A stretch of DNA of 64,000 bases, taken from positions 51,421,214-51,485,213 of the forward strand of contig NC_030381.2 in the NCBI RefSeq assembly GCF_001625215.2, read 5' to 3'. Position 1 is the first letter of the stretch. Every line of letters begins with the position of its first letter. The position numbers and the translations under genes were made by a program. Under the pieces are notes generated by a model. The model saw only the letters and a list, made by a program, of their open reading frames with translations, was not told the origin of the DNA and did no database searches. This document shows positions 4,339 through 50,450 of the stretch, one piece after another. Source of the stretch: Daucus carota subsp. sativus. Lineage: Eukaryota > Streptophyta > Magnoliopsida > Apiales > Apiaceae.

Positions 4339-6074
4339 CCCGTTTGCATCTTTCATCCCCTCGTCGGCTCTTCTTCGCCTGGGTTTTCTTCCAACCGGGC
4401 TGTGGGCCATATCTTCTCCTGGGCTTAAGGCCCAACAAAGTTTAAAATTCAGTCAAGCCCCCTCTGCTCTCACCTGGATCACTTCGAAAGGCCTTGTCCA
4501 AGTAAGCCATTATTTATTCCACATGGCGTGTCTCTCGTGAGGATTAATACTCTAACCTGGTTAAAGATATCAGCAATCAGACAAGTCTTGTCTCTTTTCC
4601 TCTGGGTTCGATTCCACAAATGGAAGTTTTGCTTTGTGTGAGTGTTACCATTATGCTGCGTGGCATTTCCGGGAGGGCATGGAGGCGTCGGACCAGAACA
4701 GGGTATTGCATCAGATCAGGCCTGCATGTTGATTGACATCTTTTGGTTCTTTGGGTTTACGTGACTCATATTGGTTTTAGTAATATGGTCTTAATTGTGA
4801 ACTTCCAAATGGTATCCATCCATTCATTGCTATTTAAAATTTACAATTTGGGTTCGGGTGAATGAATTTGGAGGAACTCCCTTCCTCCTAACAAGTCCTT
4901 CAAGCATCTCCGCGGCAGATTAGCTATGTGATATCCTGAGCTATAATTTTAGGGAATATGCACAAACATTTACTTTAGCAGAGTCCCTGTTCATTTCAAG
5001 GATCCATTTTCATTCCTCGTAAACACAGGTAATACCATCCCTTCCTCGTTTGATTTTTAAGTCCATTTTGGGAATTAACTGTTAGTGGATTAGTTAGATT
5101 TTTTGACTAACTGATTGAAATAGATTTTTTGACTGACGGATTGAATTAATGGTTTTTTGTAAAACTGTTTAGCAAATAGCTTTTTATGACACATTCCGAA
5201 CCTCTAATACAAAAAGCTCCTCAAATTAGCTTTTTGAAAATTAGCTTTTTGAGCCAAACCTCTATTTCAATCCGCTAACTATCAAACATTAACATTAGCG
5301 GATTGAAATGCTTAAACCTCTGTAACACTCCAAACCTCTAATTTTACCTCAAGCCTCCGACTTTCAAACATGGTCTAAATATTCAACTTTCACCTTTTGC
5401 ACATTATTTCTCACATTTTTTCTATTATCTTTTTGTTAAAAGAATTTGAATTTAATACTATAATAATAACAGGGAACACAAGCAAGGATTATTGTTGGAG
5501 TTGTCAATCAATATAGACTATAGAGCCCCTATTTTTAAAAATTGAATTGTTTATTGTTTATTATAAAAACAATTCAGAAAGAACTTAACATTGGGTCTCT
5601 GTTGTTTTGTTTGTAACGGTGCTAGAGATGCTCTTATACCCTGAACCAGAGATGACACCCCAAATTTGAAAATGAATGTTACAATTTGTCCTGCACCCAA
5701 TTTATTCTCAAAATCTCTTCTTAACAATTTTACATATGTATCTTTGATTACTATGGTTTAACTCATAATCCTGAGTCCCTGACTTGTTCAAGGATTATAC
5801 CCCTTAATAGGCTGTCACCTGTCAGAGCTCAGCTTAAGGTAAGCCATTATTTTAAATATGAACTAACCTATAGTAGAAAATAAAACCATGTGATTGGCTG
5901 ATTGCTTTACCGCCATTCACATTAGAAAATAAACCACCAAGCTTTATCAAGGTTAGTTCATAAGCCATCACAGTTTCACCCGCCCTGTACATGAGGATTT
6001 AATGATTGATTATAACAGTAGTGGCAAAACTGTTAATATCTCATATCACATGCATAATAAATAGAGAAGAAACA
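4339..6074. other. Intergenic region with MITE-like debris
   Basis: No coding gene is seen. About 5044-5345 contains several copies, in both orientations, of GACTAACTGATTGAA/TTTCAATCCGCTAA-type sequence and AGCTTTTTGA motifs, which looks like a small inverted-repeat element without clear ends. The run aattcagaaagaa near 5572 also occurs near 6168 at the start of the tandem duplication, with the following bases in inverted order. Confidence 0.4.
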
Positions 6075-6342
6075 ATAAAATCAGGTGAACGTAATGAGGT
6101 TTTGGCACAACTATTACCAACACTTATATGAGTTCAATCATAAACTTATAAATTTCTCATAAAAACAATTCAGAAAGAAAAACAAACAAAAGAGACCCAA
6201 TGTTGTGCCTAAGAGGACCTCCCAGTATTGACTAATTAATTAGCTATTTTTCCCGGCCTGCAGGGTGGTGCTACGGGTCCCAATTAACTCTGGCCTCGAT
6301 GGTGGTTCTGCAGATGATCTAGCACATAGAAGGCCGGTGTTG

Positions 6343-7491
6343 TCAGACATCTAGGTTCTCTCTCATGCTTGAGGCAATAGCAGAAACTCTCTCATGCTGA
6401 AAATACATTCATTTGAGGTATTCAAAGTAATTAATTGCACTTTCAAATTAAGATGTTTAGTATAATTAGTGTTAACGATATATATTTATATGCTAGTAGT
6501 TGTTACTCTCGTAAAAATAGAACATAAACTTATATTTACCTCCGCTCTTAGCCGAGCATTCTCGAGCTGAAGCTGATTTGTTTCAGAATCCACCTTTTTC
6601 AGATCTCCTGAACAACGAATGCATTCAATGTTTCTCAATGCGGCTAGCATTTTATTTTTCAATTCTGTCATCCTTTGATTTTCGCTCTCCAGTGCACCAT
6701 TGTCATTTTTATCCTGTTGGACCTGTAATATCAAATTATATATTAAAATATTTATAATTACAAAATTTCCCTTAATTAATATCAAATCAGTTATTATTCT
6801 TGTTGTGGTGGTCTAAACTCTACCTTCATCTGTGTTCGCTTGTTCTGGAACCAGAATTTGACTTGACTCGGTTGGAGACCCAAATCATGGCTAAGCCGAC
6901 GTCTTTCTTCATTACGAGGATGTTGACGTACTTTGAAAAACCTATGAACAAATATAAAAAATTATAATGAAAGTATAAAATGCACCTAATATATCTATAT
7001 TTAAAGTTTTACTTTAATTTAGCACTATAACATACAAATTTATCTTTCGTCTTTAATTGAACAAGTTTCATAGGAAAGAATTAGTCGAAATAAATTTGCA
7101 CATGGTAATAATATAGATTAAATTTAAACAAATTATGTACGATTCCATAGCCCGTTTCTGATGGAATGAGTGCCTGTGACTGTGAGAGCTTTTCTTGGAG
7201 TCTTTCTTGTTGGGTCCTGAGCTACTACCGGTTTCACGCATTCTCTTCAGTGGCGGTTGTGCACTTTCTTCTCTCTGTGATTAAATAATATCAACTTAAA
7301 AACTAATATGCAAAATGCATACAATATTATATACCATTTATATACACACTAAGTACGCATTTAGTTGTAAATTTCTGGCATACAAGAAATGATAGATAAC
7401 CATGACTTACTGGACTGTGGGAGTTCTGGTTCATGATTGCACCATTTGCCGCAGACCCCATGTCTGTCGTCGCCTGATATATCCCAGACAT
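6343..7491 (-). CDS. START-less HD-ZIP class IV protein, copy 1 (five exons, 189 aa)
   Basis: Exons on the minus strand are 7411-7491, 7141-7274, 6824-6941, 6540-6722 and 6343-6396, all with GT-AG borders and consistent phases. The protein begins [17 protein letters not shown] and then has a basic linker. A homeodomain follows, ending in the recognition helix [14 protein letters not shown], which is diagnostic of HD-ZIP class IV. A zip-loop-zip comes next, with the family's CxxC in the loop (ECIRCSGD). It closes with [13 protein letters not shown], matching the D/ERVSAIA step of the family, and then stops. Class IV members (GL2, ANL2, PDF2 type) normally continue into a START domain and are about 700-800 aa, so this gene lacks all lipid-binding sequence. 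The helix 1-2 region is divergent ([13 protein letters not shown]). Inference: it could dimerise with, and compete with, full-length HD-ZIP IV factors. Confidence 0.82.
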
Positions 7492-8332
7492 TTTTTCTGG
7501 CCGAGATCCTTAATCTGCTTTAAAAATGAAAAGAGAAAATAGAGATGATTGTCTTCAACCCAGATTTCAACAGATTTTATAGATTAACATTAGTCTAGAG
7601 ATTTTAGTTGATTTTGATTCGGATCAGAATGATTTAAATCTTATAGAATCTGCCAGATTTTAGCACAAAATTTTAGAATCTTACAGATTTCGTAGAGATT
7701 TTTAAAAGCATAAAATATACTCGCAAATCCTTAATAATCCACATGTTATTGAATACAGAAAAAATCAAACAATATATGAATACCATCTTATTTTATATTC
7801 ATTATGTCCTATTCAATTGTTTATGTGTGGGATGGAGGTCTAAACACGCATTCATGACTCATAAAGTATAACTCTATAATTTATTTTTAATTTTTCTAGA
7901 AATATTTAAACATTAAAAGTTTGGTCGTCGAACCCGGGTGTCCCGAGACAATGGAGGATAAAACCCACCACTTGGGCTATTCAATCGTGCTCATACTTGG
8001 ATGTTTTATTGCACGTGTTTAATTATTTTAAAGACCCATATAAATATTCTCATTAAATCATATCTCTTTATTCGAATTCTTAATTAGTTTTGATGGGCTT
8101 AACTATTAAAAACTTATTTTAAATGTTACATAAAATATAAATTTAATCTACCTAATTAAAATATTAACCCAAACACATCTATTGATTATTAAAAAATTAT
8201 TTTAACTAAAAACTTTTTTTTTTGTATGGACTTTGTAATGAGTAACATCTAATAATAAGTCGATGAGCTATGATGGAGCTACTATATAAAGAATGGTCCT
8301 CCCTATACTGCCCTTCGAGTGAGATACACTTA

Positions 8333-8656
8333 GGTTGTGTTCACTTGGAGTGAATGGAATGGAGGGTGAATGGAATGAATTTTGTACTCTAAAATGGTGT
8401 TAATCAAAGAAAATGTATCTAAATTTCATTCCTTTAATCATTCCAATCCTTCTATTTTAACTATAATTCTGACCCACATGTTTTGGAAGGAATGCTCATT
8501 CCATTTCCACATCATGTTCCTTTACGATTTTTCTTACAAGAAATTTAACTACATTCATATTTTGTCGCTATTATCTCATACTTTCTTCTTTATCCTTCAA
8601 ACTTCTATATAATTTTACATTCCATTCTCCACTCATTCCATTCCATTCAAGTGAAC
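8333..8656. mobile_element. MITE private to duplication unit 1
   Basis: About 324 bp with inverted ends (GTGTTCACTTGGAGTGAATG at the left, CATTCAAGTGAAC at the right). The sequence is missing at the corresponding place in unit 2 (near 12735), so it arrived after the duplication. The flanks show only TTA/TAA-like bases, so the superfamily is uncertain. Elements with similar GGAATGGAATG-rich ends lie at 33497-33783 and near 41990-42100. Confidence 0.7.
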
Positions 8657-9002
8657 TAAGTGAATCAAATTTATGAAAGACCAAGTCCCACAATCTGCTT
8701 TAATATTGAAATCAGTTACATTTTTTATATACTTTGAACGTAATCTTGATAAAATCGATGGTCAACTCAATATTAGTATTTGTTTTCATAAAAGAAAATA
8801 TAAAAAAAATGTTATAAAATTTATATTTTAAATATCTTTCAAGAAGATGATAAATTATTTATTTATTTTTATAATTAAATAATACCTCAATTTTCTTACA
8901 CGAATTAAAAATATTAAAAAGTAGAAATTATGTAAAAAAAATTAAATTTTATGTAAATTCATACTATAAATTCTGAGCACATTTTCTCATAAATTTATAT
9001 TA

Positions 9003-9306
9003 CCTCCGTCCCAACCAATTGTATACTTGGGTTGGGACACGGACGCCAAGAAAAAGTGTAAAAAATGATAAAAGTTAGATAAAAATTAGATAAAGTGGTG
9101 GGACCAATTTGTATTTAATTATATATTTGAGATGGTAGAGAAAAATAGTGGGTGTAACATTATATATTGTTATAGATTAGAGATAATGGAAAAAGTAGTG
9201 GATGGATAGTGTTTTATATTAACAAAAATTACTATTTTTGGAATGTATAGAAATGATTGGACATCCCAAAATGAAAATTGTATAGAAATGAATAGGACAG
9301 AGGGAG
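9003..9306. mobile_element. Stowaway-like MITE (shared by both units)
   Basis: Flanked by TA on both sides, with ends CCTCCGTCCCAA and GGACAGAGGGAG. This end motif and the TA target are typical of Tc1/mariner Stowaway MITEs. The homologous copy in unit 2 (13435-13943) shows that it predates the duplication. Confidence 0.8.
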
Positions 9307-9435
9307 TAATCACCAACCGGCCAAATGCAACAAATATTCATATATCTTTGAAAATAGAGATTTCGCACCAATCATTCAGAGTATTAATGTTCTACTTTTT
9401 AAATTTCTTAAAAGTACACCTAGCTTATATTTTTT

Positions 9436-9873
9436 AGAGTAAAGTACACTTTGTGTACTCCTACTCTACTCAAGACACCATTTGTAATACTGTAATTCCA
9501 AATCGAGCACTTGCAATATCAATTTTTATATTTCTTCACACTTTGTTGTATTCTTTTAATTTGGGTTAACTCCGTTAGTAATTTAAGGAGTAAAGTGCAC
9601 TTTGTGTACTCGCGCTTTACTTAAAGTGCATTTTGTGTACTCGCACTTCGATGTAAATTTTCAGCTAGAGTACTGTAAGTGATGTTTTTGAGCAAAGTGC
9701 GAGTGCACAAAGTGCACTTTACTTCTTAAATTACTAACGAAATTAACCCAAATTAACGGAATACAACAAAATTTAATGAAATACAAAGATTAATATTGCA
9801 AGTGCTCGATTTGGTACTACAGTATTACAAATGGTGTCTTGAGTAAAGTAGTACACAAAGTGCACTTTACTCT
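9436..9873. mobile_element. Foldback (long inverted repeat) element, 438 bp
   Basis: Starts AGAGTAAAGTACACTTTGTG and ends with the near inverse, CACAAAGTGCACTTTACTCT. The arms extend about 190-200 bp with few mismatches and meet at a spacer near 9660. Inner copies of the AAAGTGCACTTTGTGTACTC motif flank the centre. The flanks share an attttt run, and the uninterrupted site (tatatttttaatacta) is preserved in unit 2 at 14065-14080, so insertion followed the duplication. No coding capacity. Confidence 0.85.
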
Positions 9874-10169
9874 ATTTTTAATACTAATTTGATGTTCATT
9901 TTTTGTTGAATAAAATCAGGTGAATGAAACGAGGTTTTGGCACAACTATTACCAACACTTATATGAGTTCAATCACAAACTTATAAATTTTTCATAAAAC
10001 CAATTCAGAAAGAAAAACAAACAAAAGAGACCCAATGTTGTGCCCAAGAGGACCTCCCAGTATTGACTAATTAATTAGCTATTTTTCCCGGCCTGCAGGG
10101 TGGTGCTAGGGGAACTCTGGCCCTGATGGTGGTTCTGCAGATGATCTGGCACATAGAAGGCCAGTGTTG

Positions 10170-11307
10170 TCAGAAATCTGGGTTCTCTCTCATGCTTGAG
10201 GCAATAGCAGAAACTTTCTCGTGCTGAAAATACATTCATTTGAGGTATTCCAAGTTATTAATTGCACTTTCAAATTAAGATGATTAGCATAATTAGTGTT
10301 TATGATATATATTTATATGCTAGTAATTGTTACTCTCGTAAAAATAGAACATAAACTTATATATACCTCCGCTCTTAGCCGAGCATTCTCGAGCTGAAGC
10401 TGATGTGTTTCAGAATCCACCTTTTTCAGATCTCCTGAACAGCGAATGCATTCAATGTTTCTCAGTGCGGCTAGCATTTTGTTTTTCAATTCTGTCAACC
10501 TCTGATTTTCACTCTCCAGTGAACCACTGTCATTTTTATCCTGCAGAACCTGTAATATCAAATTATATATATTAAAATTATTAATAACTACAAAATTTCC
10601 TTTCATCAACATCAAATTAGTTATTATTCTTGTGGTGGTCCGAACTCTACCTTCATCTGTGTTCGCTTGTTCTGAAACCAGAATTTGACTTGACTCGGTT
10701 CGAGACCCAAATCATGACTAAGCCGACGTCTTTCTTCGTGACCAGGGTGTTGACGTATTTGGAAAAACCTGTGAATAGATATTAAAAATTATTATTGAAA
10801 GTATTAGATGTACTTAATATATCAATAAATTGTAGTTTTACTTTAATCTAGATATACAAATTTAACTTTTGTCTTTAATTGAACAAATTTCATAGGAAAA
10901 CATAAGTCGAAGTCAATTTTCACATGGTAATAATATAGATTAATTTAAATAAATTATGTACGATTCCATAGCCCGTTTCTGATGGAATGAGTGCCTGCGA
11001 GAGCTTTTCTTGGAGTCTTTCTTGTTGGGTCCTGAGCTACTACCGGTCTCACGCATTCTCTTCAATGGCGGTTGGGCACTTTCTTCTCCCTGTGATTAAA
11101 TAATATCAACTTAAAAACTAATATGCAAAATGCATACAATATTATATACCATTTATATACACACTAAGTACGCATTTAGTTGTTTAATTTCTGGCATACA
11201 AGAAATGATAGATAAGCATGACTTACTGGACTCTGGGAGTTCTGGTTCATGATTGCACCATTTGCCGCAGACCCCATGTCCGACGTCGCCTGATATATCC
11301 CAGACAT
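10170..11307 (-). CDS. START-less HD-ZIP class IV protein, copy 2 (five exons, 187 aa)
   Basis: Exons are 11227-11307, 10962-11089, 10651-10768, 10367-10549 and 10170-10223, with the same intron positions and phases as copy 1. The homeodomain helix [14 protein letters not shown], the zip-loop-zip and its CxxC are kept, and the protein again ends shortly after [13 protein letters not shown]. Exon 2 has an in-frame 6-bp loss relative to copy 1 in the His/Ser-rich N-terminal arm (SSRRHSFHQ against [11 protein letters not shown]). By hand count there are about 16 amino-acid differences and roughly a dozen silent changes, but no stop, frameshift or broken splice site. Keeping both reading frames while neutral insertions pile up around them suggests function, although the modest silent-to-replacement ratio would also fit relaxed constraint. 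Confidence 0.82.
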
Positions 11308-11612
11308 TTTTTCTGGCCTAGATCCTTAATCTGCTTTTAAAATGAAAAGAGAAAATAGAGATGATTGTCTTCAACCCAGATTTCAACAGATTTTATAGAT
11401 AAAGATTAGTCTAGAGATATTAGTTGATTTTGATTCGGAGCAGATTGATTTAAATCTTACAGAATCTGCCAGATTTTAGCACAAATATTAGAATCTTATA
11501 GATTTCGTAGAGATTTTTAAAATCATAAAATATACTCGCAAATCCTTCATAATCCACATGTTATTGAATACATAAAAAATCAAACAATATTTGAATACCA
11601 TTGTATTTTATA

Positions 11613-11849
11613 CTCTTATTTGAAATGTCGGTACTGTTCACAACATGAGACAAATAATTAATTTACGTCAAATCTATAAAACCAAATATAGTCACGAGTG
11701 ATCTTGTTGAATTCGTATTTATGAGTATTTTAATACGATAAAATTTTTATATTTAATACTAATATGAAACTAAAGATATTAACGATAGAAAATTTGCGTT
11801 GGCAAACGTGTTCAATGCAAACAGGAAAAGTAATAAGAGACGGAGGGAA
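11613..11849. mobile_element. Stowaway-like MITE private to unit 2
   Basis: Flanked by TA (11611-11612 and 11850-11851). Its right end, AGAGACGGAGGGAA, is the inverse of the usual CTCCCTCCGTC end. The uninterrupted site (ttttatattcatt) is present in unit 1. It is the same family as 27106-27364, in the opposite orientation, sharing for example AATGTCGGTACTGTTCA. Confidence 0.85.
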
Positions 11850-12333
11850 TATTCATTATGTCCTATTCAATTTTTTATGTTTGTGATGGTGGTCTAAACA
11901 CACATTCAAGACTCATATAAAGTATAACTCTATAACTTATTTTTAAATTTTTTTCAAGAAATATATAAACATTAAAAATTTGGTCATCGAACCCACCCAG
12001 GACAATAGAGGATAAACCCACCATTTGGGCTATTCAATCGTGCTCATACTTGGATGTTTTATTGCATGTGTTTAATTAATTTTGAGACCCATATAAATCC
12101 GACAGAGGATAAACTCTTAACCACTGAGTTATCCAACCGTGCTCCATTATTATATTTCTTTAGTCGAATTCTTAATTAGTTTTTGACGGATTTAACTATT
12201 AAAATCTTATTTTAAATGTTACATAAAATATATATTTAATCTACATAATTAAAATATTAACCCAAACACATCTATTCATTATTGAAAAATTATTTTAAAT
12301 AAAAACATTTTTTTATGGATTTTGTAATGAGTA

Positions 12334-12636
12334 CTCCCTCTGTCCCTCTCATTTCTTTACAGTTATTATTTTGGGATGTCCCTCTCATTTCTTTACGTTA
12401 CTATAAATAGTAAGTTTTTCCCATCATTACAACTACTATCTTCCCCTACTATCTCATATTTAACAATAAAAACTACTATTACACCCATTACTTTCCTCCA
12501 CTATCTCAAATCTATTATTAAATATTGATAGGTCCCACCACTTTACCCACTTTTCATCTAACTTTACTCATTTTTCATATATTGTCTTGGTCTCCGTGTT
12601 CCCCTCCAATGTAAACAATTGAGGGGATGGAGGGAG
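12334..12636. mobile_element. Stowaway-like MITE private to unit 2
   Basis: Ends CTCCCTCTGTCCCTCTCATT and GAGGGGATGGAGGGAG, flanked by TA on both sides. Unit 1 has the empty site gagtaaca near 8240, which proves the TA duplication. Confidence 0.9.
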
Positions 12637-13049
12637 TAACACCTAATAATAAGTCTTAAAATCGATGAGCTATGATGGAGCTACTGTATAAAGAATAATC
12701 CTCCAACCTATACCGCCCTTCGAGTGAGATAGACTTGGAGGTGAATCAAGTTTATGGAAGATTAAATCCCACAATTTGGGTTAATATTGAAATCAATTAC
12801 GTTTTTATATACTTTTAACGTGATCTTAATAAAATCGATGGTCAAGACAATATTAATATTTGTTTCCATAAAAGAAAAAATATAAAAAAATGTTAGAAAA
12901 TTTATATTCTAAATATCTTTCAAGAAGATGATAATTTATTTATTTATTTTTATAATTAAATAATACCTCAATTTTCTTACACGAATTAAATATATTAAAA
13001 GGTAGGAATTATGTAAAAATAATTAAATTTTATGTAAATTCATACTTAT

Positions 13050-13353
13050 TGTCAAGGAACCAGTTACTCTAAAACCTCAAGGTGTTAGAGAAAGGCCCTT
13101 TCCAGGATCTTATATTCTAACATTCCCCCTCACTCGAGAACCCATTTATGGGTCGAAGAGTGGATCACGGGCGCTCATCTTTGGAGCATTAATTTGCCAT
13201 TCGTGCCACTATAAATCGTGAGAATATTGGGGGTGGCAGGGATCGAACCTGAGTCCTCTGCCAACCTCGCTCTGATACCATGTCAAGGAACCAGTTACTC
13301 TAAAACCTCAAGGTGTTAGAGAAAGGCCCTTTCCAGGATCTTATATTCTAACA
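13050..13353 (-). mobile_element. Complete TRIM retrotransposon, 304 bp, identical 73-bp LTRs
   Basis: LTRs are 13050-13122 and 13281-13353; they are identical and, read on the minus strand, start TGTTAG and end TTGACA. Next to the inner edge is a primer-binding site TGGTATCAGAGC (minus strand, 13269-13280) matching the 3' end of initiator methionine tRNA. A polypurine tract (GTGAGGGGGAA) sits just inside the other LTR. The target duplication is cttat at 13045-13049 and 13354-13358, and unit 1 holds the empty site (catactataaattc). No proteins are encoded, so it must have used enzymes from another element. Identical LTRs point to recent insertion, though 73 bp gives little resolution. Confidence 0.93.
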
Positions 13354-13434
13354 CTTATAAATTCTTAAATCTCTGGAAACAGAACGTTTGATATATCGAT
13401 TATCTTCATGAGCACATTTTATGATAAATTTATA

Positions 13435-13943
13435 TTCCCTCCGTCCCAACTAATTGTATACATTGGGTTGGGACACGGAAACCAAGAAAATGTGTAAAAA
13501 ATGATAAAAGTTAGATTAAAATTAGGCAAAGTGGTGGTACCAATTTGCATTTAATTATATATTTGAGATGGTAGAGAAAAGTTGTGGGTGTAACGGTATT
13601 TTCCTATTTGGGAAATATTATATCTAGAGCAAATTTTTATATCCAGAGTTAAAAAAACATGAAAAGATGAAATTACGCTTCACGGTTTTTTTCTTCATTT
13701 GTTGTTATTGTGTATGCACGGGGTCAGTTTTGTATTTTCATGTTTGTTTGCTCTGAAAATAAAAACTTTGCTCTGAATATAACATTTTCCTATTTTATAT
13801 TATTATAGAATAGAGATAACGGAAGAAAGAAGTGGATATGATGGTGTTTTATATTATTAAAAACTAATATTTTTGAAATGTATAAAAATGACGGGACATC
13901 TCAAAATGGAAATTGTATAGAAATGAAAAGAACATAGGAAGGA
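13435..13943. mobile_element. Stowaway-like MITE, unit-2 copy, interrupted
   Basis: Homologous to 9003-9306, starting TTCCCTCCGTCCCAAC. It is split by the insertion at 13610-13790, and its right end is degraded. Confidence 0.7.
13610..13790. mobile_element. Small TIR element nested in a MITE
   Basis: 181 bp with inverted ends (GGGAAATATTATATCTAGAGC against the inverse of GCTCTGAATATAACATTTTCC) and a probable 5-bp duplication tattt on each side. It is absent from unit 1. The family is not recognised. Confidence 0.6.
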
Positions 13944-14080
13944 ATCGCCAACCATCCAAATGCAACAAAATATTCATTTATCTTTGAAAATAGAGATTTC
14001 GCACCTATCATTCAGAGTATTAATGCTGTTCTACTTTTTAAATTTCTTAAAAGTACATCTAGCTTATATTTTTAATACTA

Positions 14081-14440
14081 ATAGCTTATAGCCCGCGCCT
14101 TGCACGGGAGTTTATAATTATTTATAAGCTTTTTAATTATATTGTAAATGGTGTGAAAGAATTTAATTTATAAATAATCAATTAAAATTTTCAATTAAAT
14201 ATTTATTTTGGATTAAAAAAAATCATAAACATGTGAAAGACAGAATTTGTTTTGGATTCAGAATAGGAGTTATAAACATGCAAGTAGATATCAGTTGCCT
14301 TATAGAATTAGAAGTTAATATTCTTCTAATCTAACGGTGCTTATTTGTTTAATATACGATCCAACGGATGATAAACTTTTGGACCATGTGACCATGTGAC
14401 CAAATTATCTCCCTTACGCTTGTTATATATAAAATATATA
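14081..14440 (-). mobile_element. Helitron-like element, minus orientation, with exact empty site
   Basis: On the minus strand the 3' side carries a GC-rich hairpin (CCCGTGCAAGGCGCGGG) about 11 bp before the end, as in plant Helitrons. Joining the two flanks rebuilds the unit-1 sequence aatactaatttgatg exactly, with no target duplication, which is how Helitrons insert (between A and T). The terminal bases are not the canonical TC...CTAG, so the element is degraded or from a divergent family. 360 bp, no coding content. Confidence 0.65.
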
Positions 14441-15110: not shown

Positions 15111-15395
15111 AGAGCATCTCCAATTGGGGTGCTAACTAAAGTTGCTTAAAATGACAAATCATCAAAAGTATCACTATTTTATTTTCTCTGTCATTTGTAC
15201 TTTTGACAACTTTTATATAAAAATTTGCCTTAATGGTTGACACCCAAAATTGCCAAATATTTAAACAAGTACAAGTATAATAAGATAAGAAACTATATAT
15301 CTTTATGGTGATATATACATTTTTTTCCCTATTTTAGGAGGGTGCCAAAAGTTGGCAATTTTGCTTGGCACTCCTTCCACTCCAATGGAGAGCCA
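15111..15395. mobile_element. MITE-like sequence (AGAGCATCTCCAA end)
   Basis: Begins AGAGCATCTCCAATTGGGGT and closes with a rough inverse (CCACTCCAATGGAGAGCC). The same end motif bounds 54236-55172 and, more weakly, 37319-37682. No clear target duplication. Confidence 0.45.
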
Positions 15396-15448
15396 ACAAG
15401 AGTGTCATGTCACATTATGACACATGGCACTTTAGCACTCTTTTTCGC

Positions 15449-15724
15449 AGCTTTTTGGAGTTTGTGGGATTTGTGGCACCGCAGCTTTTGCCTGAGAAGT
15501 CTCCTTGTGCAAAGGATCAACTGAGGCAGCTTTTCAGGATGTTTGATCCAGATGGAAATGGATTTATTACCGTGGGAGAGTTGGCTCTACTTGGTCATGC
15601 GTCGACTGCTGAGGAGTTGAGAGGGGTGATTAGAGAAGCTGATACTGATGGAGATGGCAGGATTAGTTTTCAGGAGTTTTCACTAGCTACAACTTCAGCT
15701 GCTTTTGATAATTATTGGATTTGA
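15449..15724 (+). pseudogene. C-terminal fragment of a calmodulin-like protein
   Basis: The encoded tail resembles the second half of plant calmodulin-like proteins: FLEFVGFVAPQLLPEKSP, then EF-hand 3 with a complete 12-residue loop DPDGNGFITVGE, EF-hand 4 with loop DTDGDGRISFQE, and the family ending SAAFDNYWI. The first two EF-hands are missing; upstream there is only MITE-like DNA. About four residues are lost after the EF-3 loop (ELALLGHA, where relatives have a longer helix). The reading frame could start at an ATG at 15365 inside the repeat, but that extension has no family resemblance. Most likely a truncated gene copy; a short expressed two-EF-hand protein remains possible. Confidence 0.7.
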
Positions 15725-38935: not shown

Positions 38936-39033
38936 TATCTATCTACACCTCCTCGTTGTTCCCTATGTCATCCATTCTCACACACATTAAACCACACTCA
39001 AACCCTAACTAATCACACACACAAACACACGTA

Positions 39034-40140
39034 ATGGCGGAGCTAGAGAAGAGGTACGGAGTAGGATACGCGCTGGCCAAGAAGAAAGAGAACAGCTTCA
39101 TACAAGCTTCGCTACTGAGTCTGACGAGAGAGAGAGGAATCGATCTGATCAAAATCGACACCAACACGCCTCTAATTGATCAAGGCCCGTTTGATTGCGT
39201 TCTCCACAAGCTCTACGGTGAGGATTGGAAGAAACAATTGAATGATTATGCTGTGAAATACCCTAACGTCTTGATTCTTGACTCTCCTGATGCAATTCAA
39301 CGCTTGCATAACAGGATTTCGATGCTCGAGGTGGTTTCTGAGCTTTGTGGAGCCGAGAGTGTGCACAATGTGAATAAGGAGGATTCTTTTGGGATACCTA
39401 AGCAGGTTTTGATATATGAGTTGGAGAGGCTTTTGGATCCTTCTTTGTGGGGAGAGGAGATAATGTTTCCGGTAATTGCGAAGCCTTTGGTGGCGGATGG
39501 GAGTGCGAAATCGCATAAGATGTCGTTGGTTTATAATACGGAGGGGTTGAAGAAGTTGAGGCCACCGATTGTGTTGCAGCAGTTTGTGAATCATGGAGGG
39601 GTGATTTTTAAGGTTTATGTGGTGGGGAAGTATGTGAAGATTGTGAAGAGGAAGTCGTTGCCGGATGTTAGTGAGGACAAATTGAGGAGTTTGCAGGGGT
39701 CGTTGTCGTTTTCTCAGGTGTCGAATTTGACTCAGAGTGAGAGGAGTGATAATACGTATTATAAGACGATGAATTTGGAGGATGCGGAAATGCCTCCACA
39801 GAGTTTGATTTCGGAGATTGCTTGTGGGTTGAGGAGGGTGATGAAGTTGCAGTTGTTTAACTTTGATGTTATTAGGGATACTAGGATTGGGAATAGGTAC
39901 CTTGTTATTGATATTAATTATTTTCCTGGTTATGCTAAGATGCCGTGTTATGAGAAGGTTTTGACGGATTTCTTTTGTGATGCGTTGAACATAAAACAAA
40001 GTGGTAGCTTTGATGGTCAGCTGGGGATGAATTGCGAGAAGGAAGTTAGGATATTGGTGGATAATAATGGGCTGGTGGAGGATGAAGGTGTGCTTCCTGT
40101 CTCACCTTTGAAAGAAAATGGTAACCAAATTCAAGTATGA
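39034..40140 (+). CDS. ITPK1: Inositol-tetrakisphosphate 1-kinase (ITPK1-like), intronless, 368 aa
   Basis: ITPK enzymes phosphorylate inositol polyphosphates with an ATP-grasp fold, feeding phytate and pyrophosphate-inositol synthesis linked to phosphate sensing. The N-terminus [20 protein letters not shown], the substrate-side [12 protein letters not shown] and LHKLYGEDW, the ATP-grasp segment [47 protein letters not shown] and the metal-binding [12 protein letters not shown] are all present. The motif continues [11 protein letters not shown], with Cys where relatives I recall have Gly. The single exon matches Arabidopsis ITPK1. The protein is about 50 residues longer than that enzyme (319 aa); the extra C-terminal tail (after about residue 315) is low in conservation and ends ENGNQIQV. 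The ATG at 39034 gives the expected start. Confidence 0.96.
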
Positions 40141-45426: not shown

Positions 45427-46474
45427 TTTTTTTTTTGCCACGGATGTAAAGATTTTATTAATGAAGCAAATCTTTACAAAGAACAGAATTGAAATCAGGG
45501 TGTATATCCTCAACCACCCATCTACGATCAGCTATTAAACAGCTATATCTCGCTAAATAGTGAGCTACTCTGTTCGCGGATCGTCTTACAAACTTTAACA
45601 CTATGTTTTGACCTCTCAACTCAGATAGAATGGTTCTGCACTTCTCGATCACCTTGCCTAGGTATGAAAAACTAGAAAAGGAGCTCCGAATTAGTTGCAC
45701 AACCTGTAAACAATCTGTCTCCAGGACTACATTACTCCAGCTCTTATTCTTGATCCAACTGAGAGCCTCACTAATTCCCAAAGCTTCTGCAAACTCTGGT
45801 GTCACTCGACCATATGAACACTTGGAGACAGCTTCAATGAGATTACCATTGTTATTCCGGATGACAAAAGCAAAGCTGAAGCGATTTGGACCTTCAAAGA
45901 GAGCTGCGTCGGTGTTAATCTTAACACTATTTTGCGGAGGTGGGCGCCACTGTTCCTGACCATCTTCTGGAGTCATAAAACTCAGAAAACAATCATAGTT
46001 TTTATCTTGAACAGATTTCCATTGGTTAAGAGTAGAGGTTGCCGAGTTCACTAGTTCTGAAGGGCTGGTACTTCGCTGCTTCCATATCACTTGATTCCGA
46101 TTTTTCCACAGTAGCCAACATAATCTCCTTTTGCTGCCGCTGTTCAAACAGATGTTGTAGCCATTCTGCAAAAGTATTAAAATGACCTTGAATCATAGAT
46201 GTCATGAGGAGCTGGTGACAGTTGTTTGCAAAAGAGCAAGAAAGAAGAGCATGCAATATAGTTTCATTTTCCTCGTTGCAGATGGGGCACAATGCATGAA
46301 TACTCACTTTTTTCACTCGAAGAGTGTCCTTAGTAGGCAAACAACTGGTTGCTGCTCGCCAGAGAAAGTTCTTAATCTTGGATGGGATTTTTAAATGCCA
46401 CAGTTTACGCCAGAAACCAGAATTATCAGCTGTGTTGGGGCTTCCTTTAGCATCTTGCAGACGTACATAGGCAC
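45427..46474 (-). mobile_element. 5'-truncated LINE fragment with zf-RVT and RNase H domains
   Basis: On the minus strand the sequence encodes the end of a plant L1-type LINE ORF2. First comes a zf-RVT region (WHLKIPSKIKNFLWRAATSC, then CPICNEENETILHALLSC), then a frameshift near 46120-46140. An RNase H-like domain follows, with the acidic positions in VKINTDAALFEG, FAEALGISEAL and VLETDCLQVV and the tail RRSANRVAHYLARY. The reverse transcriptase proper is missing. A 13-14-bp duplication (agattggactagt) flanks it at 45414-45426 and 46475-46488, and a T-run at 45427-45436 is the poly-A tail of the minus-strand element. Dead on arrival through truncation. Confidence 0.92.
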
Positions 46475-46488
46475 AGATTGGACTAGTT

Positions 46489-47579
46489 ACTTCAAAGAAA
46501 AAAAAAGAAAAAGATTGGACTAGTCTGATTGTACTATTCTAAATTCATACGGAGTATACGTTTTTATTTTATTTTATCAGCATCTGATCACATCTCACTA
46601 TTCACTAATAAAAAATCAATCAATCTTTGGTCGCTGGTTAAGGGATCAGATAATTTTCAAAATAATTCATATCAGTTTAAATCCGTTTGAATTGGATCAA
46701 GTCTGATCGGACAAGTTCAAAGGTTGCTGGATCAAGTTTAAGAATATAAAACTCTTACGAAAATGGTGGTTGACCGAAAGCATGGTTTCATAAATCTGGG
46801 AAGTTTATTCATGGTAAAGCGTTGATTATGTTCTACTCAAAGTGTCTGTTTTTTCTTAATGGGCTGTAAACTTGGTTCCTGCAAGTGGTATATACGCTCG
46901 AGTCTTGTGACTTGTTGGGCTTTTGAAATATGAGGTTCTTTCTCCCACATTTCAACTAGCTGGGCTTCTTTTATTTGAAAACGCAATTCTATTTCTTACC
47001 ATATATTATATTTTGCAAGTCAATAAGAAAAATATAATGAGGACTCATTTAGCTGAGTTTGTCTGTTCCCAGACAAAATTTTTCAATGCTTTGCAAAAGC
47101 TAAGCAATCTTTTGAAATATTCATTACATATTCAATTTTAATAGGCATTGGATGGTTTTAAATTGCATCCGCAGAATTATATTGCTTTTGCAAAACATTT
47201 TTTTAGGAGAGAAAGTAAGTGAATATAAGTGAAGTAAATGTGTTTTCCCTTTCATCTCATCCCACTTTTGAAATTAAAGTTTTAGAGTGAATCTATGCTA
47301 TAATTGCATTCATTTTCACTTGCTTTCGTCCTTTTAAAAAACTCGGCAGCACAAATAGGAGTGAAAATTGCATAATTTTATTTTCTCTTCATTTGCCCTG
47401 TTTAAAACTCGGGAGCAAGGCGTAAGAGTGTCATGCTGTTAGATACTCTTTTCATATACTCGTTCATTTGACTTTTTTAACACACTCTTAACTCTTAAGT
47501 CTTGTGACTCAATCTTGAAGAATGATATGACAATGCTTAATGATGTTTCCCAGCTCCAAATGATTACTTTCTGTTTATC
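46489..47579. other. Spacer between LINE fragments
   Basis: No gene. A third copy of the LINE target sequence (agattggactagt) lies at 46512-46524 after a short A-rich run. Confidence 0.5.
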
Positions 47580-47948
47580 GCATTGACGCTTTGCAACGAA
47601 TCACTCTCAACAATAACCTCATGTGCTGGCAGCTCCTGAGTCCACTGCCTCCAAAACTCCTATTATTTCAGCTTCAAGGACAGAAACGTGACCTGGAAAT
47701 CTCATGATTTTACTCCTCAGGCAGTGTCCCCTGTGATCTCTAAGAACCATACCAACTGAGAAATATTTATTCCCCTCAAAAGCTGAGGCATCAATATTTA
47801 TCTTTAACGACCCCTCTGGCCTCCATCTCTTTTCATGCTGCACTGTTCCCTTCTTCTGAATTCTCATTTTCTGCACTTCTCTCCGCTCTTCAAGCTGCTT
47901 CCTACTCCACTTCATAACAGCACTTGATGGAACACACCACGCAAACAA
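47580..47948 (-). pseudogene. RNase H-like (RVT_3) relic
   Basis: Minus-strand translation shows RWRPEGSLKINIDASAFEG, SVGMVLRDHRGHCL and VSVLEAEIIGVLEA, the usual opening of the LINE-derived RNase H-like domain. A frameshift at about 47619-47640 interrupts it; the next frame continues with EVIVESDSLQSVNA, the following conserved block. No ends or tail were found, so it may be an older LINE fragment or a decayed domesticated copy. Confidence 0.75.
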
Positions 47949-47987
47949 GGTAGTTTATAGCTTTGCTAGATTACCTCGAGAGCTCAA

Positions 47988-48693: not shown

Positions 48694-50450
48694 CTAAGGA
48701 TCATTAATCAGATCCCTATAGAAATAATCTTCCCCATCTCCCTCATTCAGCAGTTTTTCCCAAGTATCAAATGCACTACTGGATGATGCAGCCGGTAGTG
48801 TTTCAGCTTGAACACTAGTTTGATTCATCATCTGTTTGACACCACACGGTTCATCAGTACTAGAGGCTGAAACTAATGCAGGAAGCATATCTTCCTTCTG
48901 AGGGAAAATTGAACTCTTTCCAACCGCGTCGTCCAACAAGACATCCGGCCTTAGTCCACTTCCAACATTGCCGAAATCTTTACCTGAACATTGTGCACCA
49001 GCGTGCATGTTTTGAAAGATAGATGAGTCTTGATCATAGGCTGCATCTGTCCCATTAACAAGGACATTGCCTTGAGAAGAATACGCGGAATAATTCAAGA
49101 GATTGTTTTCTTGTATGGTATTAGGAAGTAGTATTGGATTAGCAGTATTTATGATCTGCCATAAGTTTTGCAGAAGTTGGGTTGTTGGTTCGGGCTGAGG
49201 AACAAGTGATCTTAGTGCTGCTAGTGCAGGACTATCCACCGAATTCATCATCATTAAGTTGGTCAAGTTTGAGGTCGAGAGCGAATGAGAGAAATTCACC
49301 AAGAAATTATTGAGATCATTTGGAGCTATAGGTTCATGTGTCTTTGGATCGATACCACTGCTGACAAGCTTCTTCTTAATATGGGTGTTCCAGTAGTTTT
49401 TGATTCCATTATCAGTCCTTCCTGGAAGTTGGGCAGCAATCTGAGACCACCTAAATATTAATTGAACACAATTAGTACAAGAGCCGGTTTTTAGTACGTA
49501 GCTATGATGAAATCTGCAGTATCATGTAATCATGTTGCGCAACATTGTACCCCACACATGTTAGTGTCCCAAATGACCCAAATATTTGCATCTTGCAATA
49601 TGTAAGAGTCATATGTCTGAGTACCTAGAAAGCAGAGATTCTTTGCTTATCTGTCACGGTGCACACCCGATACATGGAAATTTCTGGGGACACGGCGATT
49701 TTCCTCTCACCCACAAATGATGAAGATACTTGACATACTTAATCGATTAAGTATGTTAGAATGCATCTCACCCACAAATGATGAAGATACTTGACATACT
49801 TAATCGATTAAGTATGTTAGAATGCATTGGTTGTATTTCAAATAAAAATGACACCTAAGGATAATGAACTTATTCAGATGACCATTTACTCATTTAGTAT
49901 AATTTAAATGAAAATTTTGAAATACATATATACTACTTATATATTTAACATATTGATATAAGCCAAATCTCCTAGCACCTGAATCTCCATAATCTCAAAT
50001 TTGTCGAATTTTTATATCTCCGAACTATGCACACCCCACTCACACCCGCACTCATGCTTCCCAGCTAGTACTCATAATAATCTTATAAGGACTTTAAACA
50101 ATACGGAACAAATGATAATAATTTGTTTCTTGTTTCCTAGCTAGTGTTAACTATTTATTTGCAGATCATCAGATCTCATCATACCTGTTTCCTAGTGCAG
50201 AATGCAAGTTGATGATCATCTGCTCTTCTTCATCAGTGAAGCCGCCTCTCTTGATATCAGGACTAAGATAATTAATCCACCGTAATCTGCAGCTCTTGCC
50301 ACACCTGTTTAAGCCAGCTTGCTTAGGAAGTGCAGTCCAGCTTCCCCGGAGACCATGTTTGTGGATATAATTCATCAAGATCTGATCCTCTTCTGGTGTC
50401 CATGGCCCCTTCTTTAGTCCTTCACCAGTGCAACCTGGAGCTCTCCCCAT
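48694..50450 (-). CDS. R2R3-MYB transcription factor, two exons, 340 aa
   Basis: Exon 1 is 50185-50450 and exon 2 is 48694-49450, joined in phase at the classical R3 intron ([13 protein letters not shown]). The protein begins [19 protein letters not shown]2 contains [15 protein letters not shown] and R3 contains [19 protein letters not shown], followed by [18 protein letters not shown] as in the MYB9/41/93/102-type clade that regulates suberin, wax or stress responses (clade by resemblance only). The C-terminus is acidic with a Trp motif ([17 protein letters not shown]), a likely activation domain. Oddities: R2 has one extra residue (KHGLRGSW), the near-invariant Glu in TDNEIKN is Gly, Cys is replaced in APGC, and the usual first intron in R2 is absent. 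A Helitron lies 200 bp upstream. Confidence 0.95.
49706..49827. repeat. 61-bp tandem duplication with perfect palindromes, in the MYB intron
   Basis: Copies 49706-49766 and 49767-49827 are identical. Each contains a perfect 24-bp palindrome (49733-49756 and 49794-49817) centred on TTAATCGATTAA. Confidence 0.95.

What the first reader, a model, noticed from the sequence alone, without database searches (positions are those of the whole stretch)
6343..11307. Tandem pair of intact HD-ZIP IV genes that stop before the START domain
Both copies keep a five-exon structure, the [10 protein letters not shown] recognition helix, the zip-loop-zip with CxxC, and a stop a few codons after it. Class IV HD-ZIPs normally need START and SAD domains. 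A homeodomain plus dimerisation module alone could bind L1-box-like sites or sequester full-length partners, like a small interfering protein. No START-like sequence was seen downstream of either copy.
Basis: partly seen in the sequence, partly recalled or inferred. Interest (0 to 1): 0.78.

Follow-up and report, generated by a model that had tools for sequence, protein, structure and literature searches.

The report
Carrot homeobox genes lacking lipid-sensing domain
Two neighbouring carrot genes encode only the DNA-binding and pairing half of a plant skin-cell regulator, without the lipid-sensing half, and they look like working genes that could block or tune the full-length regulators.

Summary
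Confirmed: the window (carrot) holds two intact minus-strand, five-exon HD-ZIP IV genes (189 and 187 aa) whose last exon is 17 codons and a stop. Copy 2 equals the NCBI carrot protein 'ROC7-like' letter for letter. No START was found in the 64 kb; the nearest START match in the genome is about 250 kb away. The pair is a ~3.8 kb tandem duplication with dN/dS 0.28 (P 0.0007 against 1). Trees favour an HDG5/ROC3 origin (100/99.6 with carrot paralogues; weaker with outgroups; AU tests reject no alternative tried), and carrot keeps a full-length HDG5. They are not alone: of 34 class IV homeodomain exons hand-picked from 56 genome hits, 21 have a START within 3 kb and 13 have none (this pair, plus 11 in an array at 42.88-42.91 Mb with four intact 241-aa copies related to a Heracleum protein). 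Lamiales carry further START-less proteins. Published GL2/PDF2 work says START is dispensable for DNA binding but needed for homodimerisation and stability, so the likeliest role is a lipid-independent competitor at L1-box-like sites; that role is inferred, not shown. A new variant of a known family.

The parts
7411..7491 (-). copy 1 exon 1 (ATG at 7491)
   Evidence: splice reconstruction
7141..7274 (-). copy 1 exon 2 (basic N-terminal arm, first part of homeodomain)
6824..6941 (-). copy 1 exon 3 (rest of homeodomain, recognition helix [14 protein letters not shown])
6540..6722 (-). copy 1 exon 4 (zipper 1, CxxC loop, most of zipper 2)
6343..6396 (-). copy 1 exon 5 (end of zipper 2, stop; 189 aa in all)
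11227..11307 (-). copy 2 exon 1 (ATG at 11307)
   Evidence: protein identical to P0001
10962..11089 (-). copy 2 exon 2
10651..10768 (-). copy 2 exon 3 (recognition helix)
10367..10549 (-). copy 2 exon 4 (zipper-loop-zipper)
10170..10223 (-). copy 2 exon 5 and stop (187 aa in all)
7575..7581 (-). TATAAAA 90 bases before the copy 1 ATG, shared with copy 2 (candidate TATA box)
   Evidence: consensus match only
11391..11397 (-). TATAAAA 90 bases before the copy 2 ATG
   Evidence: consensus match only
6074..9442 (.). tandem duplication unit 1 (matches 9909-14081 in pieces, 81-92%)
   Evidence: self-blast
9909..14081 (.). tandem duplication unit 2, with later insertions
   Evidence: self-blast
9435..9874 (.). 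inverted-repeat element (terminal arms 28 nt, 93%) between the two units, probably a MITE insertion (my reading)
   Evidence: I1, I8, I12

Best explanation
The two genes are functional, START-less class IV HD-ZIP genes. A class IV gene, most likely of HDG5/ROC3 type, was duplicated and its coding sequence came to end just after the zipper, so START and SAD were lost; a later ~3.8 kb tandem duplication made the pair (structure shown by sequence; HDG5 parentage favoured, not certain). The proteins keep the recognition helix and a degenerate zipper-loop-zipper, so they most likely bind L1-box-like sites without lipid control, poorly stabilised and poorly dimerising, and compete passively with full-length HD-ZIP IV activators, perhaps also forming mixed dimers through the zipper (inferred).
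For: Intact frames and splice sites in both copies. dS 0.154, dN 0.044, ratio 0.28, Fisher P 0.0007; neutral simulation P 0.0012 for so few amino-acid changes; the single coding indel is 6 bases, in frame. Helix 3 is 14 of 16 identical to Lonicera and Cornus HDG5, while helices 1-2 (16-17 of 35), zipper 1 (13-14 of 32), loop (3-4 of 18) and zipper 2 (11-13 of 22) have diverged. HDG5 clade 100/99.6 in a 52-row tree with carrot's own full-length HDG5 L016; 89/99 in 69 rows; 98/100 in 75 rows. Class IV rows, the pair included, are apart from six other carrot HD-ZIPs with 100/100. No START match within 250 kb. The PDF2 HD-ZIP fragment is crystallised on DNA (9lpe: best fold match; best PDB sequence match). 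PMC9706426: the START of PDF2 does not influence DNA binding in vitro; START is required for GL2 homodimerisation and stability. A truncated HD-ZIP II that still dimerises and binds DNA (ATHB17 delta113) acts dominant-negatively (PMC3988052, abstract and section headings).
Against: No transcript, protein or binding data were available. AU tests do not reject placing the pair with ROC8/HDG11 (P 0.28), with the 24 Lamiales short proteins of that tree (P 0.33) or with the carrot array plus Heracleum (P 0.33). With six outgroup rows (38-row tree) the pair stays on the HDG5 side of a branch with only 85/99, and the root falls among the HDG5 rows, so HDG5 is not recovered as a clade. The best single full-length hit was a Euphorbia ROC8-like protein, not an HDG5 (120 of 271 hits listed). 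A ratio of 0.28 does not exclude that one copy is free of constraint (P 0.10 against 0.5). The zipper and loop are much changed, so dimerisation may be lost. No L1 box TAAATGYA or other class IV motif tried lies in the genes or near upstream; the only place between 5500 and 14500 is at 13553-13555.
Confidence: 0.52

Rival explanations
1. Dimer sequestration: the short proteins act mainly like LITTLE ZIPPER microproteins, pairing with full-length HD-ZIP IV proteins through the zipper and taking them off DNA or into dead complexes.
For: Zipper 1, the CxxC loop and zipper 2 are retained, with helices modelled at pLDDT 89-97 (zipper 1) and 74-93 (zipper 2) per block of ten residues. ZPR microproteins arose by stepwise shortening of an HD-ZIP ancestor (PMC5381583, passages).
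Against: Unlike ZPRs, the DNA-binding homeodomain is kept and its helix 3 is the best-kept part (14-15 of 16 against five of six references, 13 against the sixth), and zipper 1 and the loop are worse kept; START, absent here, is reported necessary for GL2 homodimerisation.
Confidence: 0.2
2. Decaying gene fragments: 5' pieces of a class IV gene that happen still to be open.
For: Very long stem branch (1.67 changes per column); only two such copies among the genome hits; outside carrot no hit covering half of the protein exceeds 47% identity; 5 of 6 type B copies in the other carrot array show in-frame stops.
Against: dN/dS 0.28 with P 0.0007; all 8 introns keep GT-AG. Rough extrapolation (mine): the neutral simulation gave P(no stop) 0.26 for 35 changes; about 310 changes on the stem branch would then leave no stop with P about 1e-5.
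Confidence: 0.17
3. Gene-model artefact: transcripts splice on into a START domain further downstream.
For: Class IV genes normally carry START about 0.8-3.0 kb after the HD exon (21 carrot HD exons).
Against: No START found in the 64 kb (tails shown to work) nor within 250 kb; copy 2 is followed by copy 1 after 2.7 kb; NCBI's model of copy 2 ends at the same stop.
Confidence: 0.02
4. Lipid-independent activators: the short proteins bind sites and turn genes on by themselves, as minimal factors.
For: DNA-binding part kept; an N-terminal segment of about 55 residues is shared by both copies.
Against: No Pfam family other than homeodomain types reaches its cut-off; full-length GL2 function needs START.
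Confidence: 0.09

Closest known systems
HDG5/ROC3-type full-length HD-ZIP IV (carrot L016 on C2, Lonicera P0182, Cornus P0168)
   Same: Homeodomain, zipper-loop-zipper with CxxC, introns inside the HD, after TQMK and after LKEE/LRAE; tree placement 100/99.6
   Different: 187-189 aa instead of about 800; no START, no SAD; stem branch 1.67 changes per column; shorter loop
START-less HD-ZIP IV proteins of Lamiales (Perilla, Salvia, Sesamum, Rehmannia, Striga, Castilleja, Buddleja and others)
   Same: HD plus ZLZ, about 160-225 aa, end soon after the zipper; some with neighbouring locus tags
   Different: Fall with the HDG2/PDF2 side of the trees, keep the YVGKP linker and have a different tail
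Carrot array C1:42.879-42.915 Mb and Heracleum P0083
   Same: START-less class IV HD-ZIP in the same plant family, tandemly arrayed in carrot, stop in the exon after the zipper
   Different: Separate clade (99/97 for array plus Heracleum; union with the window pair not rejected); Ala-rich N-terminus; 241 aa
LITTLE ZIPPER (ZPR) microproteins of HD-ZIP III
   Same: Shortened descendants of a larger HD-ZIP gene (PMC5381583, passages)
   Different: ZPRs have only a zipper; these keep the homeodomain and probably DNA binding
ATHB17 delta113 (truncated HD-ZIP II made in transgenic maize)
   Same: DNA binding and dimerisation kept, effector part lost (PMC3988052, abstract)
   Different: Class II, product of a transgene, truncated at the N-terminus

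Membership tests
HD-ZIP class IV | Homeodomain of class IV type | tested here: met
   Pfam 6.2e-15 / 6.5e-16; best PDB sequence match PDF2 HD-ZIP 3e-21
HD-ZIP class IV | Zipper-loop-zipper with CxxC | tested here: met
   Alignment: C143 and C146 invariant in 18 rows; loop 2 residues shorter than in the full-length rows
HD-ZIP class IV | START domain | tested here: not met
   positive control
HD-ZIP class IV | SAD / C-terminal domain | tested here: not met
   8 of the 12 tails come from full-length proteins and include the C-terminal part; no hit with E under 0.29
HD-ZIP class IV, by descent | Falls with class IV against other HD-ZIP classes | tested here: met
   100/100 split of 32 class IV rows from 6 other carrot HD-ZIPs (class I by my reading)
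HDG5/ROC3 clade of class IV | Nests inside that clade | tested here: inconclusive
   100/99.6, 89/99 and 98/100 without outgroup; 85/99 and no HDG5 clade with outgroup; AU does not reject others
MicroProtein (ZPR-like) | Single protein-interaction domain, no DNA binding | tested here: not met
   Homeodomain kept with recognition helix nearly unchanged
MicroProtein (ZPR-like) | Inhibits its relatives by heterodimerisation | not testable with these tools
   needs interaction data
Pseudogene | Broken frame, dN/dS near 1 | tested here: not met

The most novel reading that the evidence does not exclude
Asterids have repeatedly cut class IV HD-ZIP genes down to a DNA-binding half (this carrot pair probably from HDG5, Apiaceae a second time, Lamiales at least once from the HDG2/PDF2 side), giving a hidden class of lipid-uncoupled epidermal regulators that tandemly multiply and that family surveys miss because they filter on START.
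Probability: 0.4. Interest if true: 0.75.

Novelty: new variant of a known kind. Interest (0 to 1): 0.55.

Why it matters
START is held to couple epidermal HD-ZIP IV factors to lipids (ceramides for ATML1/PDF2, PMC10126025, passages) and to be indispensable for GL2 function (commentary PMC9706426, whole text). Natural genes that dispense with it, apparently under constraint, give a direct test of what the DNA-binding half does alone. They also point to a survey blind spot: a patchouli survey kept only proteins with HD, LZ and START (PMC12104194, passages), and an Acorus survey removed truncated proteins by hand (PMC11082295, passages).

Tried and rejected
Rejected: HD-ZIP I/II identity (best PDB match PDF2; CxxC loop; the HD-ZIP names given to hits are, as far as I read them, class IV names; split from six other carrot HD-ZIPs). 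Rejected: START hidden downstream (control 95). Rejected: transposon capture as the source of the pair; the duplication is an ordinary tandem unit with shared introns and flanks, and the inverted-repeat element at 9435-9874 lies between the units. Rejected lead: tomato MTR1/MTR2, which I had recalled as possible short HD-ZIPs, are SlCYCB2/SlCYCB3 (PMC12223484, passages). Led nowhere: a plasmid search; promoter motif counts (11 L1-box matches in 64 kb, no shuffled control, no enrichment claimed). A ROC8 origin, first suggested by the best full-length hit, is not favoured by the trees but not excluded. A first self-blast for inverted pairs in L029 and L031-L033 listed none because the palindromes align to themselves as one piece; one search shows them in L031, L029 and, short, L032, none in L033.

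Literature: nine paper searches. Opened as passages: PMC12652440, PMC12223484, PMC10126025, PMC6796446, PMC12104194, PMC9979464, PMC11082295, PMC4740955, PMC3281058, PMC5381583; outline and abstract: PMC3988052; whole: PMC9706426. In those listings and passages I saw no description of START-less HD-ZIP IV genes as a group; most subscription papers are not held, so this is not proof of absence in print.
Full report
What is there. The window is G000:C1:51,421,214-51,485,213 of a 441-Mb, 11-contig genome. C1 is 56,320,272 bases long, the same as the contig of the carrot record that holds the NCBI protein identical to copy 2, so the plant is Daucus carota. Both genes are on the minus strand with five exons each, and all introns are GT-AG. 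The proteins are 189 and 187 aa and 91% identical. The homeodomain is a clear Pfam hit. The zipper-loop-zipper keeps both cysteines but its loop is two residues shorter. AlphaFold with a 36-row alignment gives mean pLDDT 80, with block means of 96-98 from residue 61 through the homeodomain, 89-97 over zipper 1, 60-74 over the loop and 74-93 over the second zipper. The best solved match is the PDF2 HD-ZIP on DNA (9lpe, TM 0.86 and 0.92 by target length). The N-terminal 60 residues are modelled poorly (53-68).

No START. Sixteen class IV proteins hit the HD and zipper exons in the 64 kb and otherwise only chance places with E 0.45-0.73. The START-side tails of 12 proteins, 8 of them full-length, gave nothing better than E 0.29; as a control the same tails give E 1e-26 or better on four carrot START loci. 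A genome-wide search with Pfam START returned 130 matches (150 of 152 candidates scored), none within 250 kb of either gene. As a comparison within the genome, I took 34 class IV HD-exon hits out of the 56 rows by hand. I left out six other exons of this pair, one zipper exon, and 15 homeodomain matches at 29-40% identity that run on across the class IV exon borders; six of these 15 were fetched later and are HD-ZIPs of another class by my reading. I compared the 34 with 36 of the 130 START rows, leaving out second pieces and nearly all rows of the C8/C9 arrays. Twenty-one of 34 have a START 0.8-3.0 kb downstream; 13 have none within 4.5 kb: the two window copies and 11 in an array on the same contig. 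Fifteen of 15 other carrot loci that I fetched (L014-L028) show START-region hits. The genome search scores only the best candidates, so counts are lower bounds.

Are they working genes? Between the copies dS is 0.154 and dN 0.044, ratio 0.28 (16 synonymous, 19 amino-acid changes; Fisher P 0.0007). A neutral simulation of the same number of changes reached so few amino-acid changes with P 0.0012. The only coding indel is six bases. Against a strong claim: relative to a ratio of 0.5 (one copy free) P is 0.10, and no expression data were available here. Divergence is uneven: intron 1 differs at 2 of 136 sites, intron 2 at 25 of 191, intron 3 at 11 of 98 and intron 4 at 8 of 143, which suggests gene conversion or constraint at the 5' end.

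Where they come from. In trees of the HD-ZIP region the pair falls with HDG5/ROC3: 98/100 in 75 rows, 89/99 in 69 rows after I dropped six rows, mostly long or partial, and 100/99.6 in 52 rows, a chosen 41 of the 69 plus 11 rows from carrot loci and Heracleum (two of 13 typed rows, L015 and the L020 fragment, were left out). One search had already lost two rows without a WFQN motif, and P0035 and P0099 were dropped. With six carrot HD-ZIPs of another class as outgroup (38 rows), class IV including the pair is one side of a 100/100 branch, but the pair stays on the HDG5 side with only 85/99 and the root falls among the HDG5 rows. AU tests do not reject three other placements: with ROC8/HDG11 (0.28), with the 24 Lamiales short proteins (0.33), and with the carrot array plus Heracleum (0.33). 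The closest single full-length protein was ROC8-like. I therefore call HDG5 origin favoured, not settled. Carrot also has a full-length HDG5 (L016, C2), so the pair is an addition, not a replacement. The stem branch is long (1.67 changes per column). Introns inside the HD, after TQMK and after the second zipper match L016, so this is a duplicated gene, not a retrocopy. The pair itself is a tandem unit of about 3.8 kb.

Not the only ones. On C1 at 42.879-42.915 Mb a unit of about 7.65 kb repeats, the long matches at 98.5-99.7% identity, and carries START-less HD-ZIP genes. Of five type A copies, four are intact in my four-exon model (241 aa, stop in the exon after the zipper); the fifth matches only about half of the first exon, poorly. 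Of six type B copies, five show in-frame stops in their zipper-exon hits and the sixth (42879308) shows none there but gave no match to the last exon. The array groups with a START-less Heracleum protein, P0083 (99/97). From the protein collection I collected 57 Lamiales rows by name out (one search lists 120 of 543 hits), leaving out four Lamiales rows (P0061, P0079, P0096, P0119) that look like START-bearing or ANL2/HDG-type genes. Of the 57, 38 start with Met, keep the HD, have at most 230 residues and reach a linker-like tail, by a crude pattern that lets in a few doubtful rows. They span Lamiaceae, Orobanchaceae, Pedaliaceae, Gesneriaceae and other families (families recalled), some with neighbouring locus tags (Rehmannia, Phlomoides, Dorcoceras). 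They sit on the HDG2/PDF2 side of the trees. This suggests repeated loss of START; the data do not exclude fewer events.

How it most likely works. Shown: an intact HD with a nearly unchanged recognition helix, a changed zipper, and coding constraint between the copies. Known from others: the START of PDF2 does not influence DNA binding in vitro, while START is needed for GL2 homodimerisation and slows its breakdown (PMC9706426, a commentary, whole text); START binding of ceramides keeps ATML1/PDF2 levels up in the epidermis (PMC10126025, passages). Inferred: the short proteins can occupy L1-box-like sites without lipid control and without an effector part, and so damp full-length factors; heterodimers are possible but less supported. 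A shortened HD-ZIP II is reported to act this way in maize (PMC3988052, abstract and headings).

Known or new. HD-ZIP IV is defined by HD, ZLZ, START and SAD; these fail the last two, so they are class IV by descent but not by domain content. I found no paper describing such genes as a group in nine searches (listed in Tried and rejected). Surveys can select against them (PMC12104194 requires START; PMC11082295 removes truncated proteins). A survey of Sesamum indicum reports no tandem HD-Zip duplicates (PMC6796446, passages), whereas one search lists six short proteins of S. radiatum, another species, on contigs of one and the same length. The S. radiatum records carry NCBI's UNVERIFIED_CONTAM label, so that contrast needs care.

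Noticed in passing
G000:C1:42879308-42914503 (L009-L013): Tandem array of START-less HD-ZIP IV genes in carrot, 7.65-kb unit, long matches at 98.5-99.7% identity; 4 of 5 type A copies intact (241 aa); 5 of 6 type B copies show in-frame stops in their zipper exon.
   Followed up: partly
L031 (G000:C8:21299000-21308900): PDF2-type START exon sequence arranged as repeated inverted pairs: seven pairs of 60 nt or more, the four longest with arms of 217-237 nt, 89-93% complementary and 1-50 nt apart, nested in a self-palindrome of about 7.3 kb. If transcribed these would fold into hairpins and could be small-RNA sources against HD-ZIP IV START exons.
   Followed up: partly
L030:6094-8651 (G000:C8:21236093-21238650): START-to-C-terminus PDF2-like gene region with no homeodomain hit in 6 kb upstream: the mirror image of the window genes. 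L029 is similar, but its upstream was not covered.
   Followed up: partly
G000:C9:4.7-59 kb, 4.44-4.51 Mb, 19.78-19.83 Mb (L032, L033 sampled): Many START fragments, most listed with an in-frame TAG; the one piece tested is 81% identical to HD-ZIP IV loci L020/L021. Degenerate arrays at three places on C9.
   Followed up: no
window 7141-7491 against 10962-11307: Exon 1, intron 1 and exon 2 are much more alike between copies (intron 1: 2 of 136) than introns 2 and 3 (25 of 191, 11 of 98): gene conversion or 5' regulatory constraint.
   Followed up: partly
P0083 (Heracleum sosnowskyi): One annotated protein holds two START-less HD-ZIP IV copies in a row, probably two tandem genes fused by the annotation.
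   Followed up: no
window 39031-40137 (+): Uninterrupted inositol 1,3,4-trisphosphate 5/6-kinase gene, 369 aa.
   Followed up: no
window 48697-49521 (-): Last exon of a MYB gene (R2R3 type by my reading; Myb Pfam hit 1e-6).
   Followed up: no
window 15338-15724 (+): EF-hand pair, calmodulin-like open frame.
   Followed up: no
window 45461-47954 (-): RNase H-like and zf-RVT pieces, remains of a non-LTR retrotransposon by my reading.
   Followed up: no
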